NCBI RefSeq assembly: GCF_014217805.1
Contig: NZ_CP055156.1
Span: 5,710,585-5,774,584 of the forward strand
Length of the DNA stretch: 64,000 nucleotides
Direction: 5' to 3'
From: Adhaeribacter swui
GTDB taxonomy: Bacteria > Bacteroidota > Bacteroidia > Cytophagales > Hymenobacteraceae
Notes under the pieces: model-generated
Told to the model about the DNA's origin: nothing
The model's database searches: none
What the model saw: the letters and a program-made list of their open reading frames with translations, nothing else
Shown: positions 864 through 63,264 of the stretch, in pieces
Position numbering within the stretch: position 1 is the first letter of the stretch
How the letters are laid out: each line of letters begins with the position of its first letter
Program-made: the position numbers and the translations under genes

Positions 864-897
864 TTAATTATGAATTAAAATTAGAAATCAGAAATAA
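864..897 (+). repeat. Heptamer repeat array, left arm of an inverted pair
   Basis: On the plus strand the units are TTAATTA, TGAATTA, a 6-base AAATTA, GAAATCA and GAAATAA. The array faces a second array in inverted orientation at 1010-1044, and together they bracket about 110 bp of other sequence between two minus-strand genes. Confidence 0.6.
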
Positions 898-1009: not shown

Positions 1010-1044
1010 AAATTTCTAATTTTTAAAATTTAATTTCTAATTTA
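1010..1044 (-). repeat. Heptamer repeat array just after the carboxylase stop codon
   Basis: Read on the minus strand, five consecutive 7-mers follow within a few bases of the stop codon at 1049: TAAATTA, GAAATTA, AATTTTA, AAAATTA and GAAATTT. The period of seven is exact across all five units. It is the partner of the inverted array at 864-897. Confidence 0.65.
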
Positions 1045-4709: not shown

Positions 4710-7352
4710 TTGAGGATATACTTCACTCTGGTTTTTGCTTTATCGGGATTGATAAGTGCCTGGGCGCAGCAAACGCCTAACCGGACAACTACGTCCCAAA
4801 CCCCGGAAATAACCGTAGATACGGTTACGGTAAAACAAGATTCGATCCAAGGTGATATTACTACCACAATTAAGTATACCGCTAAAGATTCTATTGTTTT
4901 AAACGTACAAAACCGCTTGGTTAATATGTACAACGATGCCAGTATTGAATATGGTACTATGTCGTTGAAGGCGCATACCACCCAACTGGATTATAAAACC
5001 AACCTGGTAAATGCCATTGGAGCCAAAGATTCTACAGGCAAAGCCATTGGTACACCCTTGTTTAAAGACGACCAGCAATCGTATGAAGCCGAGCAGATTA
5101 GCTATAATTTTAAAACCAAAAAAGGCAAGATCCGGGAGGTAGTAACCAAGCAGGGCGAAGGTTTTCTGCACGCCGAAGTTGTTAAAAAAACCGAAGGCGA
5201 TGCCATGTACGGCATTCATTCAAAATATACCACCTGCGATCTACCGCATCCGCATTTTTACATAAATTCTAGTAAGATGAAGGCCATACCGGGTAAAAAG
5301 ATTTTTACCGGCCCTTTTAATCTGGTATTTGGCGATATTCCTACGCCCTTGGGCTTTTTGTTTGGTTACTTTCCTACGCCCAAAAAGCGCAGCTCCGGAT
5401 TGATTATACCTACTTTCGGGGAATCGAGGCAGCGGGGTTTTTACTTACGGAACGGCGGATATTATTTTGTATTAAACGAAAATATCGATATGCGATTAAC
5501 CGGCGATATTTTCTCGTTGGGTAGTTACGGCGTTCAGTTGCAATCGATGTACATCAAACGTTACCGTTACCGCGGTAATATCAGCATGAGTTTTAGCTCC
5601 AACAAAAGTCCGGTTACATCGGTAAGTGAAGCCAGCATTGGTCCGGGCAACTTTCGCCGGATTGAGCCTAAGTCTTTCTGGATTAGCGCCAGCCACACGC
5701 CCACTAACTTAAGGCCAGGTGGTAAATGGTCGGCTAGTGTAAACGCGGGTACGCAGTTTTATAATCGCCAAAATAACTTTCAGGATCCCCGAAGTGCTTT
5801 AAATAACACGTTTAACTCCAGCGTGCAGTACCAGTTTGCGAAGCCAACCTCGCCTTTTACCTTAACGGCATCGGCTTTGCATAATATGAACACCACTACT
5901 GGCGTCCATAACTTTACCTTACCCGAAGCTACCTTTGCCGTAAACCGCCAAACTCCGTTTAAGTGGTTTCAGAAAAAAAGCACCGGCAACTGGTTCGAAG
6001 ATATTGCTTTGAGTTATAGTGTACGGGCTAGCAATTTAGTTTCTACTCAAATTAATGGTACATCCTTAAGCGGGGTTTCTAATTTAGTGGGTGGCAGTGC
6101 GAACGATACCATTTTAAAATTAAACGGTAAAAATTTTCAAAGAATCTTAGCCAACGCCGATTACGGTATTCAGCATACCTTGCCCATTACCATGAACAGT
6201 TTGCGGTTGTTTAAGTATTTTCAACTATCGCCGGGCTTAAGCTACAACGAAACCTGGTTTTTTAAAAAATTCGATTACAACTACATCAACAACTTAAATG
6301 CCATTCAAATTGACACGACCAAAGGCTTTTACCGGGCTTATTCTTACGCCGCTTCGGCCAGTTTAAGCACCCGGGTGTATGGTACCTATATTATTAAAGG
6401 CAAAAAAATTGAGGCTATCCGTCACTTAATGACGCCCAATATTAGCTACTCATACAACCCTGATTTCTCAAACAAATACACCCGCCGTATCCAGGTGGGC
6501 CGACCCGACATCGAAAATAATATACCCATTCAATACTTACCTATTTACCGTAACTTGTACGGAGTACCCACGTCAATGGAGCAAAGCAATATGAATTTCA
6601 GCTTAACCAACAACGTGGAGATGAAGGTAAAATCAAAGTCCGATACAGCCAGTACCTTCGAGAAAGTAAGCTTAATTGATAACTTAGGTATAACATCGGG
6701 CTACAATTTTGCTGCCGATTCTTTTCAGTTGCAAAATTTTAATGTGCAGTTCCGGACCTTATTATTTAAAAAATTAAATTTATTCTCCAATGCCGTTTTC
6801 GACCCTTATAAAGTGAACAGCAACGGTCGTCGTTTAAATGAATATACCTTAAGTAGTGGCCAGTTAGCCCGCCTGGTAAATGCCAATTTAAACATGTCGA
6901 TGGAGTTAAACCCCGAAGCGCTTAAAAAAGGAGCACAAAACCAGAATCAGCCACCCAGCGCTAACCGGCCATCGCTGGAAACCAACCCTAATTTAATTGC
7001 CGAATACGTAGATTTTAAAATTCCGTGGACTTTGAGTTTTAACTTTACTGCTTCTTATTTTAAAAGCACCCGTTTGAGCGCTAAAGACCAAATTTCTAAA
7101 TCGTTGGGCGTAGATGGTTCGGTAAATTTAACTGATAAATGGAAAGTAACTTATAGTACCGGTTACGATTTCCAGTTTAAGCAAATGACCTACACCAGCA
7201 TTAACATTTACCGCGACTTACATTGCTGGGAAATGAGCATTTCGTGGGTTCCTTTTGGGCAGTACCAATCTTATTCGATTAACATAAATGCCCGTTCTTC
7301 TATCCTGCGCGATTTAAAACTTACCCGCAACCGGGGAATTTACTGGCGCTAG
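4710..7352 (+). CDS. lptD: Putative LPS-assembly protein LptD (outer-membrane beta-barrel)
   Basis: An approximately 880-residue outer-membrane protein: signal peptide (IYFTLVFALSGLISAWAQ), an N-terminal LptA/OstA-like beta-jellyroll region (about 50-200, including YGTMSLKAHTTQLDYKTN and YEAEQISYNFKTKKGKIREV), then a long barrel rich in alternating aromatic residues. This is the Bacteroidota form of LptD, which inserts lipopolysaccharide into the outer leaflet. The start is uncertain: no ATG is available. TTG at 4710 is listed, but CTG at 4689 is also in frame after the upstream TAA (4680) and would add NRLPHIL before the signal peptide. The promoter at 4654 allows either. It is divergent from amiC. 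Confidence 0.85.
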   Translation: MRIYFTLVFALSGLISAWAQQTPNRTTTSQTPEITVDTVTVKQDSIQGDITTTIKYTAKDSIVLNVQNRLVNMYNDASIEYGTMSLKAHTTQLDYKTNLVNAIGAKDSTGKAIGTPLFKDDQQSYEAEQISYNFKTKKGKIREVVTKQGEGFLHAEVVKKTEGDAMYGIHSKYTTCDLPHPHFYINSSKMKAIPGKKIFTGPFNLVFGDIPTPLGFLFGYFPTPKKRSSGLIIPTFGESRQRGFYLRNGGYYFVLNENIDMRLTGDIFSLGSYGVQLQSMYIKRYRYRGNISMSFSSNKSPVTSVSEASIGPGNFRRIEPKSFWISASHTPTNLRPGGKWSASVNAGTQFYNRQNNFQDPRSALNNTFNSSVQYQFAKPTSPFTLTASALHNMNTTTGVHNFTLPEATFAVNRQTPFKWFQKKSTGNWFEDIALSYSVRASNLVSTQINGTSLSGVSNLVGGSANDTILKLNGKNFQRILANADYGIQHTLPITMNSLRLFKYFQLSPGLSYNETWFFKKFDYNYINNLNAIQIDTTKGFYRAYSYAASASLSTRVYGTYIIKGKKIEAIRHLMTPNISYSYNPDFSNKYTRRIQVGRPDIENNIPIQYLPIYRNLYGVPTSMEQSNMNFSLTNNVEMKVKSKSDTASTFEKVSLIDNLGITSGYNFAADSFQLQNFNVQFRTLLFKKLNLFSNAVFDPYKVNSNGRRLNEYTLSSGQLARLVNANLNMSMELNPEALKKGAQNQNQPPSANRPSLETNPNLIAEYVDFKIPWTLSFNFTASYFKSTRLSAKDQISKSLGVDGSVNLTDKWKVTYSTGYDFQFKQMTYTSINIYRDLHCWEMSISWVPFGQYQSYSININARSSILRDLKLTRNRGIYWR

Positions 7353-7359
7353 TAGTTTA

Positions 7360-7408
7360 GAAATTATGAATTAGAAATTAAAAATTAGAAATTAAAAATT
7401 AGAAATTA
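7360..7408 (+). repeat. Heptamer repeat array after lptD (seven units)
   Basis: Seven consecutive 7-mers begin eight bases after the lptD stop codon, with the unit forms GAAATTA (four times), AAAATTA (twice) and TGAATTA (once). The period is exact. An inverted counterpart lies at 7612-7647. Confidence 0.75.
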
Positions 7409-7420
7409 ACGCTTAATATT

Positions 7421-7456
7421 ACGCTTCTTTTACTCCGGTATTAGAAGCGTTTTTTA
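7421..7456 (+). terminator. lptD terminator
   Basis: The stem ACGCTTCT pairs with AGAAGCGT (7443-7450), with a second short TAC/GTA pairing inside the loop, followed by a run of T. Confidence 0.75.
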
Positions 7457-7611
7457 TTCTAAATATTACCACTTTGGTAGAAAAACAGTATTACCTAGTT
7501 ACTAGCTACGCATATGTTGTATGATTAGAACAGCCTGTTTTTAGTTAATAAAACTAAATCTTAAACCAAGTTTTATTTTCTGGTTGAGAAACATCAGAAC
7601 CTAATTTGATA

Positions 7612-7647
7612 TAATTTCTAATTCATAATTTTTTGATTTTTAATTAA
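7612..7647 (-). repeat. Inverted heptamer array upstream of panB
   Basis: Read on the minus strand from 7647 the units are TTAATTA, AAAATCA, an 8-base AAAAATTA, TGAATTA and GAAATTA. This is the same family as 7360-7408 in opposite orientation. Confidence 0.65.
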
Positions 7648-7660
7648 TTGTTACCCTCGC

Positions 7661-8479
7661 ATGTCAGTACACCGAAAAGATATAAAACTTATTACGACTC
7701 ACCAGTTACAGGCCATGAAGGAGCGCGGAGAGAAAATATCGATGCTCACGGCTTACGATTTTTCCATGGCAACTATCCTGGATGGTGCGGGGGTTGATGT
7801 GTTATTGGTCGGAGACTCTGCTTCGAATGTAATGGCCGGGCATACCACTACCCTTCCGATTACTCTGGATCAAATGATTTACCATGCTTCGTCGGTGGTG
7901 CGCGGAGTAAAACGTGCTCTGGTTGTGGTAGACTTACCTTTTGGCTCTTACCAGGGTAATTCTTCCGAAGCCTTGCGCTCGGCCATCCGGATTATGAAAG
8001 AATCGGGCGCTCACGCAATTAAACTGGAAGGTGGCAGCGAAATTAAAGATTCCGTTATCCGGATTTTAAGCGCCGGGGTGCCCGTTATGGGTCATTTGGG
8101 TTTAACGCCGCAATCAATTTATAAATTCGGCACCTACACCGTACGGGCCCGGGAAGAACAAGAAGCTAAAAAACTCCTGGAAGACGCCTTATTGCTGGAA
8201 GAACTCGGCTGTTTTGCCCTGGTACTCGAAAAAATACCTTCAGAATTGGCGCGCCGGGTAGCCGAAGGGTTACGCATTCCGGTAATTGGCATTGGCGCCG
8301 GACCAGCCGTTGATGGGCAGGTTTTGGTGTCGCATGATTTGCTGGGCATTACTAAAGAATTTAAACCCCGGTTCCTGCGCCGGTACGCTGATTTACACGA
8401 AGTAATGACCAACGCAGTAAGCAACTATATTGCCGACGTAAAATCGCGCGACTTTCCGAGTGCTGAAGAAGCTTATTAG
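7661..8479 (+). CDS. panB: 3-methyl-2-oxobutanoate hydroxymethyltransferase
   Basis: PanB uses 5,10-methylene-THF to hydroxymethylate alpha-ketoisovalerate to ketopantoate, the first committed step of pantothenate and coenzyme A synthesis, in the cytoplasm. The 272-residue length is normal. A TIM-barrel signature is visible: MLTAYDFS near residue 28, the metal-binding D52 in LLVGDS, D91 in [11 protein letters not shown]123 in IKLEGG and the catalytic glutamate E190 in LVLEKIP. The start ATG at 7661 gives the usual short N-terminus before [10 protein letters not shown]. It has no pan partner nearby and is followed by a heptamer array that overlaps the last base of the stop codon. Confidence 0.96.
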
Positions 8480-8510
8480 TTGCAGGTTATAGGTTGCAGA
8501 TTACAGGTTT
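8479..8510 (+). repeat. Heptamer repeat array after panB
   Basis: Four 7-mers, GTTGCAG, GTTATAG, GTTGCAG and ATTACAG, start on the final base of the panB stop codon. The period is seven, but the composition is GC-richer than the other arrays. No inverted partner is apparent in the gap. Confidence 0.6.
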
Positions 8511-8564
8511 AAAATTGTGGCATTTATTTCTAAATAGTGCCGAGGAATTATTAGTAATGTGGGC

Positions 8565-8690
8565 AAATGTCGCCTTTGGGGGTGTCCTCACCACCAAAAC
8601 CGAATAGCTCAACAAAAAATTATTTGTATGAGCTTTTTCTGGATACAACTCATTATTAATCTAAAAATGTTAAACAGCTTTAATATAAAT
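8565..8690 (-). repeat. Decayed dispersed repeat, copy 3 (inverted relative to 62.2 kb)
   Basis: The sequence aligns with the reverse complement of about 62190-62312. Shared blocks include CGCCTT-GGGGGTGTC, ACCAAAAC, ATAGCTC-ACAAAA and AAATG-TAAACAGCTT, in the same order and at similar spacing. A 62-codon frame crosses this stretch (8559-8747), but it is poor in coding character and I do not annotate it. Confidence 0.6.
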
Positions 8691-8775
8691 CCTTCTTTTA
8701 TAAAGATTTGTATTGAAGCTGTTGCTTTCCTAAAAACAGGAGAATAAATAACCCAAAATGCTAAATTTTTAAAAA

Positions 8776-9483
8776 ATGCTGGATATTGGGCGGTTGGTTG
8801 TTTACGAAGATAATCACATAATAGTAATAAATAAGCCGGCGGGTGTTTTGGTGCAAGGTGACGAAACCGGGGATGTGCCCTTATCAGAATTAGTAAAAAA
8901 CTACCTGAAAGAAAAATACCAGAAACCGGGCAACGTGTTTACCGGCGTGGTGCACCGCCTCGACCGACCTGTGAGCGGCATTGTTTTGCTGGCTAAAACC
9001 TCCAAAGCCCTGTCGCGCATGAACGAACAATTTCGCAGCAATACCATTCATAAAACGTACCTGGCAGTTACCAGTAAACCGCCAATTTCTAAAGAAGCCC
9101 ATCTGATACATTGGCTCGTAAAAGACGAAAAGCGTAACGTTACCCAAGCCTTCTCCAAAGAAGTACCTAAAAGTTTACGCGCCGAATTAAGTTACCAGTT
9201 CATGAGCCAGGAACAGGAATTTTCTTTAGTTCAGGTTAAACCGGTCACTGGCCGTCCTCACCAAATACGGGTGCAACTGGCCACTCAAAAAAGTCCGATT
9301 GTGGGCGATGTAAAGTACGGTGCTCCCCAACTTTTACCGGATAAAAGCATTTGTTTGCACGCTTTCCGTTTAAACTTTGTGCATCCCGTACGGCAGGAAA
9401 AGGTGGTTGTATCGGCTTTACCTCCATCTACTTTTCCCTGGAATTTGTTTCAACAAAAAATAAATCTGCTGGTTTCGCAATAA
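8776..9483 (+). CDS. RluA-family 23S rRNA-type pseudouridine synthase
   Basis: A 235-residue enzyme that isomerises uridine to pseudouridine in rRNA or tRNA. The catalytic motif HRLDRPVSG carries the catalytic aspartate at about D63, and GRPHQIRVQL near residue 158 is the second conserved block. There is no N-terminal S4 domain, so it is a short RluA-type protein rather than RluC/D; the target base cannot be predicted. The start ATG follows an AT-rich leader with no clear ribosome-binding site, normal in this phylum. It sits downstream of panB but is separated by 296 bp of repeat-bearing sequence, so it is probably transcribed separately. Confidence 0.9.
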   Translation: MLDIGRLVVYEDNHIIVINKPAGVLVQGDETGDVPLSELVKNYLKEKYQKPGNVFTGVVHRLDRPVSGIVLLAKTSKALSRMNEQFRSNTIHKTYLAVTSKPPISKEAHLIHWLVKDEKRNVTQAFSKEVPKSLRAELSYQFMSQEQEFSLVQVKPVTGRPHQIRVQLATQKSPIVGDVKYGAPQLLPDKSICLHAFRLNFVHPVRQEKVVVSALPPSTFPWNLFQQKINLLVSQ

Positions 9484-52574: not shown

Positions 52575-52579
52575 ACCTG

Positions 52580-52610
52580 GATGTTAGATGCTAGATTTTA
52601 GATATTAGAC
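52580..52610 (+). repeat. Heptamer repeat array after sucD
   Basis: Units GATGTTA, GATGCTA, GATTTTA and GATATTA, then GAC, starting six bases after the stop. The same unit forms occur at 63124-63165. No inverted partner was seen. Confidence 0.65.
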
Positions 52611-52629
52611 TAAATTTTAATTTTTTTTT

Positions 52630-63123: not shown

Positions 63124-63165
63124 GATTTTAGATTTTAGATTTTAGATGTTAGATATTGGATGTTA
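63124..63165 (+). repeat. Heptamer repeat array after lipoprotein gene (six units)
   Basis: GATTTTA three times, then GATGTTA, GATATTG and GATGTTA, exact period seven, beginning three bases after the stop. Inverted partner at 63240-63260. Confidence 0.75.
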
Positions 63166-63239
63166 GACTAAAATAAAAGATATATATATTTTGACGGATC
63201 TCAATGAACTATATTATTGAAGTTAGTAAGCATCTTTTT

Positions 63240-63260
63240 TATAATCTAAGATCCAACATC
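63240..63260 (-). repeat. Inverted heptamer array before the corA stop
   Basis: On the minus strand GATGTTG, GATCTTA and GATTATA, the inverted counterpart of 63124-63165, starting four bases from the CorA stop codon. Confidence 0.65.
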
Positions 63261-63264
63261 CAAA

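What the first reader, a model, noticed from the sequence alone, without database searches (positions are those of the whole stretch)
7360..7647. Heptamer arrays in inverted pairs filling an intergenic gap (lptD-panB)
Seven exact 7-bp units (GAAATTA, AAAATTA, TGAATTA) start eight bases after the lptD stop, and an inverted array of the same units ends 13 bp before panB. The same design occurs at 864-1044 and 63124-63260. All three enclose 70-200 bp of otherwise unrelated sequence. The period of seven puts stop triplets (TAA, TAG) in all frames. Cyanobacterial STRR elements are also heptameric; I know of no described counterpart in this group. Transcripts across a pair could fold into a long hairpin. 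This could be a mobile-like or regulatory element class.
Basis: partly seen in the sequence, partly recalled or inferred. Interest (0 to 1): 0.7.

Follow-up and report, generated by a model that had tools for sequence, protein, structure and literature searches.

The report
Gene-gap hairpins built from heptamers
The gap between two genes is bracketed by mirror-image runs of a seven-letter DNA word, one case of a frequent hairpin design in this bacterial family whose words change from species to species while the two arms tend to stay matched, which points to a process or function that reads the pairing and not the letters.

Summary
In a 1.2 Mb sample of this genome (Hymenobacteraceae, inferred from panB) 66 of 732 gaps hold period-7 arrays: 87 arrays against about 3 in shuffled gaps. 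They form a few families (AGTCCAT, GTTGCAG/GTAGCAG, GAAATTA, GATGTTA), beside an octamer family of the same design. Arrays sit at gene edges, nearly always in one inward orientation (175 similar pairs to 6), mostly with the same family at both ends; in 20 of 53 stop-edge cases the stop codon is in register with the array. The DNA enclosed at 7360-7647 holds a terminator-like hairpin conserved in sister species. Across species the layout recurs while the sequence changes: downstream of panB, 44 of 47 distinct gaps from two other genera have an inverted pair beyond their shuffles, 30 of them with period-7 arms, and both arms tend to change together. Best explanation: stems made by slippage and kept complementary by template switching between arms, tolerated or used in transcribed gaps. 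Closest described case: G-rich heptamers of Xanthomonas and Nostoc. New here: several families without G-runs, and family turnover with matched arms.

The parts
7360..7408 (+). left arm: seven exact 7-bp units of the GAAATTA family, between the lptD stop (7350-7352) and the terminator-like hairpin
7421..7450 (+). terminator-like hairpin (ACGCTTCT...AGAAGCGT, then T-run) inside the pair; counterparts in G003, G005, G006 and in array-less G004. Not listed by the terminator scan, whose loop limit is 8
7612..7647 (-). right arm: reverse complement of the same family, three clean units then degenerate; ends 13 bp before the panB start
864..895 (+). left arm of a second pair, GAAATTA family, at a gene start edge
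   Evidence: arrays in the orthologous gap of G003, G005, G006
1011..1044 (-). right arm of the second pair, at a stop edge
63124..63167 (+). left arm of a third pair, GATTTTA/GATGTTA family, 3 bp after a stop codon in a convergent gap
   Evidence: gap folds with z -2.9
63241..63262 (-). right arm of the third pair (TAATCTAAGATCCAACATCC)
8480..8512 (+). single array, GTTGCAG family, beginning at the panB stop codon; the orthologous gap carries inverted pairs of other families in other genera
52575..52611 (+). single array, GATGTTA family, straight after a stop codon

Best explanation
These are stem-forming inverted repeats at the edges of gene gaps. Each arm is a short tandem array of 7-bp (sometimes 8-bp) units. 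SHOWN by sequence: arrays concentrate at or within a few bases of stop and start codons; they nearly always read one way inward from both edges; the two ends mostly carry the same family; at the gaps followed across species the sequence differs while the arms tend to stay complementary; folded as RNA, the tested cases give long stems. INFERRED: the tandem units come from replication slippage, and the arms are kept matched by template switching, in which the polymerase copies one arm as template for the other. This lets a whole arm pair change together without needing paired point mutations. The stems are tolerated, and possibly used, because they lie in non-coding gene ends where they leave terminator, promoter and start codon intact. 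That these ends are transcribed, and whether the stem has a benefit to the cell, is not shown.
For: Pairing: both-edge gaps 13 against 1.15 expected; same family in 15 of 20 two-edge gaps of four genomes, permuted mean 5.3, maximum 13. Orientation: similar edge arrays of different gaps are same-inward 175 to 6 in the own sample (four of the six involve one merged palindromic call) and 37 to 0 in three sister species; consecutive same-family arrays within 400 bp, six families by pattern, are inward 22, outward 0, same-direction 3; AGTCSAT pairs in 194 genomes of the order: 7 inward sites in 3 genomes (backwards-read control: one site in one genome), outward 0 of 194. Concerted change: after one and the same stop codon, own and G003 carry a TAGTCCA stem, G005 and G006 a TAGTTGTTCG stem. 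Downstream of panB, 44 of 47 distinct gaps of two other genera have an inverted pair above 10 own shuffles; in 30 an arm overlaps a period-7 call, which shuffles give 0 of 235 times. In Rufibacter-type gaps the 5 bases before ATTGCT[GA] are identical in both arms in 6 of 8 scorable hairpins of 11, with six different 5-mers. Arms match their own partner better than same-family arms of other species (unselected windows: 24 of 35, p 0.008). Fewer arrays in divergent gaps, 8 of 174 against 87 of 812 (p 0.011). Five folded cases have z -2.9 to -10.5. Template switching that creates and repairs stems is described in PMC8794818 (abstract and opening paragraphs).
Against: Inside the own genus the arms of one gap are not clearly closer to each other than to other arrays of the same family (mean fraction beaten 0.62, n 14; poorest for GAAATTA). 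In the cross-species test two of five groups show no excess. A few families shared by many gaps need some spread between loci, which local slippage and switching alone does not give. Five of 20 two-edge gaps carry different families. The shared inward strand is not predicted by a purely local process. It comes with G exceeding C on it (23 of 28 left arrays; C exceeds G in 17 of 26 right arrays), although a milder excess of the same sense exists at the edges of gaps without arrays. Several family members lack the pair after panB: of 26 further family loci, 14 have an inverted pair of score 12 or more above shuffles, and some of those are other repeats. No replication intermediate or mutation event was observed.
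Confidence: 0.45

Rival explanations
1. The RNA stem is directly selected: it bridges the end of one reading frame and the start of the next, as a double-stranded processing site (RNase III type) or as 3'-end protection, and sequence is free so long as it pairs.
For: Recurrence at one gap over genera with matched arms; the gap is 27 bp or less in 14 of 25 loci outside the family, so the stem may sit between two genes that share an mRNA; fewer arrays between divergent genes; very stable folds.
Against: If RNA pairing were selected, G-U-keeping mismatches should beat A-C ones: 60 to 41 (p 0.07) in 43 codirectional pairs, 12 to 13 in 7 convergent pairs, and 43 to 33 (p 0.30) in the panB set (the sets share some gaps). 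At lptD-panB a terminator-like hairpin lies inside the pair, so most transcripts may not hold both arms. In 11 of 25 loci outside the family the panB gap is longer than 27 bp, most without arrays. 666 of 732 sampled gaps of this genome lack detectable arrays.
Confidence: 0.27
2. Non-autonomous mobile hairpins (MITE- or REPIN-like) that settle at stop codons, each family spread by an unidentified enzyme; lone arms are remnants.
For: 87 of 93 edge arrays of four genomes fall into five single-linkage clusters; the same stop codon is followed by different families in sister species; own stop-edge arrays have TAG stops in 14 of 36 against 17.5% in the sample (p 0.002) and the stop codon is in register in 20 of 53 (p 2e-5); parts of one hairpin recur elsewhere in sister genomes.
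Against: 17 enclosed cores share no common core, with only two weak cross-matches; at lptD-panB the pair encloses a terminator-like hairpin that array-less G004 also has; no target duplication was demonstrated and no transposase or RAYT search was made; spacers vary (1 to 179 bp in the panB set).
Confidence: 0.2
3. Arrays are binding sites for a sequence-specific protein or form G-quadruplexes, as considered for Xanthomonas, Nostoc and Beggiatoaceae heptamers.
For: Tandem motif arrays next to start and stop codons; the same edge positions as the G-rich class (PMC4692102).
Against: Different families occupy the same gap in related species; the main families of this genome lack G-runs, so quadruplexes are not available.
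Confidence: 0.05
4. Low-complexity A/T-rich intergenic DNA, coincidence.
For: The GAAATTA family is A/T-rich and gaps are 34.5% G+C.
Against: Shuffles keeping dinucleotides give about 3 arrays against 87; other families are not A/T-only; orientation and pairing rules.
Confidence: 0.01

Closest known systems
GGGAATC repeats of Xanthomonas and GGGGA(C/T)T repeats of Nostoc (Rehm et al. 2015, PMC4692102; abstract, passages and sections 14-16 seen)
   Same: Heptamer arrays in gaps; 70 and 75 convergent inverted pairs in two Xanthomonas genomes; sense strand after stops and antisense strand before starts; overlap with stop codons; scarce between divergent genes; repeat length varies between the two Xanthomonas while the type (single or pair) is usually kept.
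   Different: There a G-rich unit with quadruplex potential; here several A/T-richer families plus an octamer family in one genome, swapped between species at the same gap with both arms changing together. That paper could not identify a role for its repeats.
TAACTGA direct repeats of Beggiatoaceae, Cyanobacteria and five Bacteroidetes (MacGregor 2015, PMC4679880; abstract and passages seen)
   Same: Intergenic heptamer arrays, in the main genome mostly just before start codons; in Flexibacter litoralis one set in reverse orientation just after a stop, which fits the inward rule.
   Different: Other heptamer; described as direct repeats, with one indirect repeat in the main genome.
STRR heptanucleotides of heterocystous cyanobacteria (recalled; Calothrix heptanucleotides are cited within PMC4692102)
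   Same: Short tandem heptamers between genes. In 200 kb of a Trichormus variabilis plasmid, five of the 11 arrays called (one inverted AGTCAGG pair and three AATTCGC-type arrays) follow the inward rule.
   Different: Pairing and orientation are not part of the description as recalled; period 7 did not stand out by count in that plasmid (11 arrays, period 6 gave 13).
REP/BIME/REPIN and MITEs (recalled)
   Same: Small multi-copy intergenic hairpins.
   Different: Arms are tandem 7-mers with no common core sequence; no known end motif or transposase link shown or searched.

Membership tests
G-quadruplex heptamer repeats (Rehm 2015) | G-rich unit with runs of three or more G | tested here: not met
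   Main families AGTCCAT, GTTGCAG, GAAATTA, GATGTTA lack such runs. An Arcicella gap does have GGGATTA-type units (L057).
G-quadruplex heptamer repeats (Rehm 2015) | Convergent inverted pairs close to stop (sense) and start (antisense), scarce between divergent genes | tested here: met
TAACTGA repeats (MacGregor 2015) | Unit TAACTGA | not tested
   TAACTGA was not searched for as such; the members printed for the five clusters do not have that unit.
MITE / transposon-derived element | Shared core or terminal sequence between copies | tested here: inconclusive
   No shared core: 17 cores compared, two weak cross-matches. A recurrent outer TAG was noticed by eye but is also the stop codon.
MITE / transposon-derived element | Target-site duplication and clean empty site | tested here: inconclusive
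   Sister species gaps are too diverged for a clean empty site; strains of one species were not available.
Invertible promoter (phase variation) | Enclosed segment found in both orientations | tested here: not met
   One gap, four species: the terminator-like hairpin has the same orientation in own, G003, G005, G006.
Intrinsic terminator | G+C-rich stem followed by a T-run | tested here: not met
   At start edges the arrays end a few bases from the start codon; the scan lists nothing in the lptD-panB gap (its loop limit is 8), where a separate hairpin with T-run lies inside the pair.
Known RNA family (Rfam 15) | Match at gathering score | tested here: not met
   No match in window 7000-9000; other sites not searched.

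The most novel reading that the evidence does not exclude
A general class of intergenic stems whose sequence is arbitrary but whose arms are rewritten together: a DNA-level copying process (template switching between arms plus slippage) writes matched tandem arrays at gene ends, recurs at the same gaps over genera, and keeps a fixed inward strand. One process could then underlie cyanobacterial STRR, Xanthomonas GGGAATC, Beggiatoa TAACTGA and these Bacteroidota families, so far described as separate repeats.
Probability: 0.3. Interest if true: 0.82.

Novelty: new variant of a known kind. Interest (0 to 1): 0.62.

Why it matters
Intergenic heptamer repeats are described in several bacterial groups without an agreed function (PMC4692102, PMC4679880). 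Here one gap can be followed through dozens of species in which the repeat sequence differs again and again while its two arms tend to stay complementary. That separates explanations which need the letters (protein sites, G-quadruplexes) from those which need only pairing, gives a natural test bed for template-switch mutation in bacteria, and warns that compensatory change alone need not prove a selected RNA structure.

Tried and rejected
G-quadruplex or sequence-specific binding as the general explanation: set aside because families replace each other at the same gap. Invertible promoter: enclosed segment not inverted in sister species at the one gap examined. TA target duplication at stop codons: attractive from register and TAG excess and from one compact hairpin read by eye, but the sister gaps gave no clean empty site. 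RNA wobble signature: tested twice, trend only (p 0.07; p 0.30). Arm-specific matching within the own genus: not shown. The panB arm comparison is biased when arms are picked as the best own pair (32 of 34), so the unselected-window result (24 of 35) is the one to use; its 35 gaps were sorted into five family groups by eye, and related species are not independent. The panB set has 56 gaps, nine of which I added because they looked array-bearing; counts in the summary use only the other 47 (52 loci, less 3 identical gaps and 2 gaps under 60 bp). Of the 44 above shuffles, 30 have an arm overlapping a period-7 call, 1 a period-8 call only, and 13 neither; some of the 13 are other inverted repeats (for example L281, L303), some heptamer-like arms below threshold. 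The 26 further family loci are mixed (14 with a pair of score 12 or more above shuffles), and the period-7 call, tuned to this genome, is unreliable in their G+C-rich gaps. One sampled relative, G020, shows no excess of period 7 in 80 kb (1 array; periods 5-10 give 1-3). Cyanobacterial comparison is qualitative. The period-7 threshold is not calibrated for coding DNA. Gene calls are from a simple script, not from annotation. Literature: searches of the held open-access library; in the lists returned I saw no description of these families in Hymenobacteraceae.

Full report
WHAT WAS CHECKED. The window is G000:C3:5710585-5774584 of a 6.23 Mb genome in three contigs. Its panB is closest to Pontibacter, Rufibacter and Hymenobacter among the named genomes returned, so I place it in Hymenobacteraceae by inference. 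Two single arrays in the window, 8480-8512 and 52575-52611, were not listed.

BEYOND CHANCE. I took 60 even stretches of 20 kb of the same genome, called 906 genes with a simple codon-usage script and examined 732 gaps of 30-1500 bp. With a detector of four consecutive units, set so that shuffled gaps give about 3 arrays for each period, period 7 gives 87 arrays in 66 gaps; period 8 gives 32, period 9 26, the others 5-14. Gene interiors show no excess (155 against 253 in one shuffle). Scaled up, about 340 gaps in the genome would carry arrays (extrapolation).

THE RULES. Edge: 56 of 87 arrays lie within 15 bp of a gap edge against 17.8 expected under uniform placement (maximum 34 in 20,000 simulations). 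Pairing: 13 gaps have arrays at both edges against 1.15 expected. Orientation: a family-free test compares edge arrays of different gaps after turning each to read inward; 175 similar pairs agree and 6 disagree, four of the six from one merged palindromic call; in three sister species 37 agree and none disagrees. Consecutive same-family arrays within 400 bp, for six families given as patterns, are inward 22 times, outward never, same-direction 3 times, over 1.2 Mb own and 0.52 Mb sister DNA. With a strict AGTCSAT pattern in 194 genomes of the order, 7 inward sites occur in 3 genomes (the backwards-read control has one site in one genome) and no outward site; the own genome has none at that stringency. 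G exceeds C in 23 of 28 left arrays and C exceeds G in 17 of 26 right arrays; the edges of 544 gaps without arrays show a milder asymmetry of the same sense. Families: 87 of 93 edge arrays from four genomes fall into five single-linkage clusters; 15 of 20 two-edge gaps have the same cluster at both ends (permuted mean 5.3, maximum 13), five do not. An octamer family (GTTGGAAG and variants) has the same design: of 30 period-8 arrays that are not A/T-only, 18 are near an edge and 18 are in gaps with an inverted pair. Stop codons: at stop edges the gene's own stop codon is in register with the array in 20 of 53 cases (chance about 1 in 7, p 2e-5), and TAG is used in 14 of 36 own cases against 17.5% in the sample (p 0.002). 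Direction of genes: arrays are scarcer between divergent genes, 8 of 174 against 87 of 812 (p 0.011); pairs 2 of 174 against 44 of 812 (p 0.015), own sample and three sister species together. Other sampled relatives: period 7 leads in G017 and G028 (9 arrays each in 80 kb, other periods 1-5) but not in G020 (1 array).

THE GAP GIVEN. In lptD-panB the arms flank, and do not replace, other conserved DNA. The hairpin at 7421-7450 with its T-run has counterparts in G003, G005 and G006, which carry arrays at both ends (the right arms short and read by eye), and in G004, which has none; G007 also has both arms by eye. The array lies between stop codon and hairpin on one side and just before the panB start on the other. 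The RNA of the gap folds with the two arms paired (-69.3 kcal/mol, z -5.4). The enclosed segment has the same orientation in the four species aligned, which argues against an invertible switch. Of 41 window gaps, 9, 17 and 26 could be matched in G003, G005 and G006; arrays there are sometimes shared (7353-7660, 855-1048) and sometimes present only in relatives (2684-2807, in G003 with a weaker version in G005).

TURNOVER WITH MATCHED ARMS. At L144:3135-3309 the own genome and G003 carry a TAGTCCA stem directly after the stop codon; G005 and G006 carry a TAGTTGTTCG stem after the same stop codon. The gap after panB is the best series. In 14 of 25 loci outside the family it is 27 bp or less (all five Dyadobacter: 27 bp); in the other 11 it is 49-432 bp, two of them (Arcicella L057, Mucilaginibacter L062) with clear array pairs. 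In Rufibacter- and Pontibacter-type genomes it holds inverted pairs of ATTGTTG, GTTATTA, AATTACG, GAGTTAT, AATGAGT and TTAGAAA units, or octamers. Of 47 distinct gaps from 52 loci, 44 have an inverted pair stronger than all ten own shuffles and 40 reach score 12; in 30 of the 44 an arm overlaps a period-7 call, which shuffled versions give in 0 of 235; 13 overlap neither a period-7 nor a period-8 call. In 26 further family loci, 14 have a pair of score 12 or more above shuffles, some of them other repeats. In the Rufibacter ATTGTTG group, 8 of 11 hairpins show the reference motif in both arms; in 6 of the 8 the five preceding bases are the same in both arms, and these are six different 5-mers. 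Own-arm matching beats the mean of same-family arms of other species in 24 of 35 cases with unselected windows (p 0.008); two of five groups show no excess. In the own genus this arm-specific effect is not established.

MECHANISM. At these gaps pairing and place persist better than the letters. Sequence-specific binding and quadruplexes are therefore unlikely as the general reason. Two processes fit: selection for an RNA stem, or DNA copying between arms. Selection for RNA should favour G-U over A-C mismatches; the data lean that way without significance (60 to 41, p 0.07; 43 to 33, p 0.30). Template switching can create and repair stems in one step (PMC8794818, abstract), needs no intermediate, and could act across an enclosed segment (inference). 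I therefore put slippage plus template switching first (0.45), a selected RNA stem second (0.27) and mobile hairpins third (0.20). The weak point of the first is the spread of few families over many gaps and their common inward strand. The weak point of the third is the absence of a shared core, of a clean empty site and of a tested enzyme.

KNOWN RELATIVES. Rehm et al. 2015 (PMC4692102; abstract, passages and sections 14-16 seen) describe the same layout for G-rich heptamers in Xanthomonas and Nostoc, including 70 and 75 inverted pairs in two Xanthomonas genomes, and conclude that a role remains to be found. MacGregor 2015 (PMC4679880; abstract and passages seen) reports TAACTGA arrays in Beggiatoaceae, Cyanobacteria and five Bacteroidetes. 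In 200 kb of a Trichormus variabilis plasmid five of 11 called arrays (one inverted AGTCAGG pair and three AATTCGC-type arrays) obey the inward rule, but there is no excess of period 7 by count. Hence: new variant of a known kind, with the multi-family design and the matched turnover as the new part.

Noticed in passing
L125:15364-16267, L144:4620-5402, L149:2730-3835 (own genome), L190:7801-8340 (G003): A G+C-rich dispersed repeat (GCCAAACGAGGCCCGCCGGCCACGAGGC) recurs in gaps of this genus; it looks like a second, REP-like element.
   Followed up: no
window 10380, 11808, 12059, 13951, 49423 and others: Many gaps hold short A/T-only octamer runs (such as AAATTTTT, TTTTAAAA); period 8 is strongly over-represented in gaps (49 against 1.8 in shuffles).
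   Followed up: partly
L152:4304-4502 and L132:18919-19082 (own genome): Heptamer and octamer units (GTTGCAG, GTTAGAAA) occur side by side at the same gap edge, as if unit length slips between 7 and 8.
   Followed up: partly
L166 and L173, after panB: The gap to the next conserved gene is 641 and 726 bp and, read by eye, seems to hold an extra gene, with array hairpins on its two sides.
   Followed up: no
G243: Three panB-like hits in one Pontibacter-type genome, two of them at 70% and 62% identity.
   Followed up: no
L057 (Arcicella MAG), after panB: An inverted pair of GGGATTA-type units, close to the G-rich heptamers of Nostoc and Xanthomonas, in a Bacteroidota genome.
   Followed up: no
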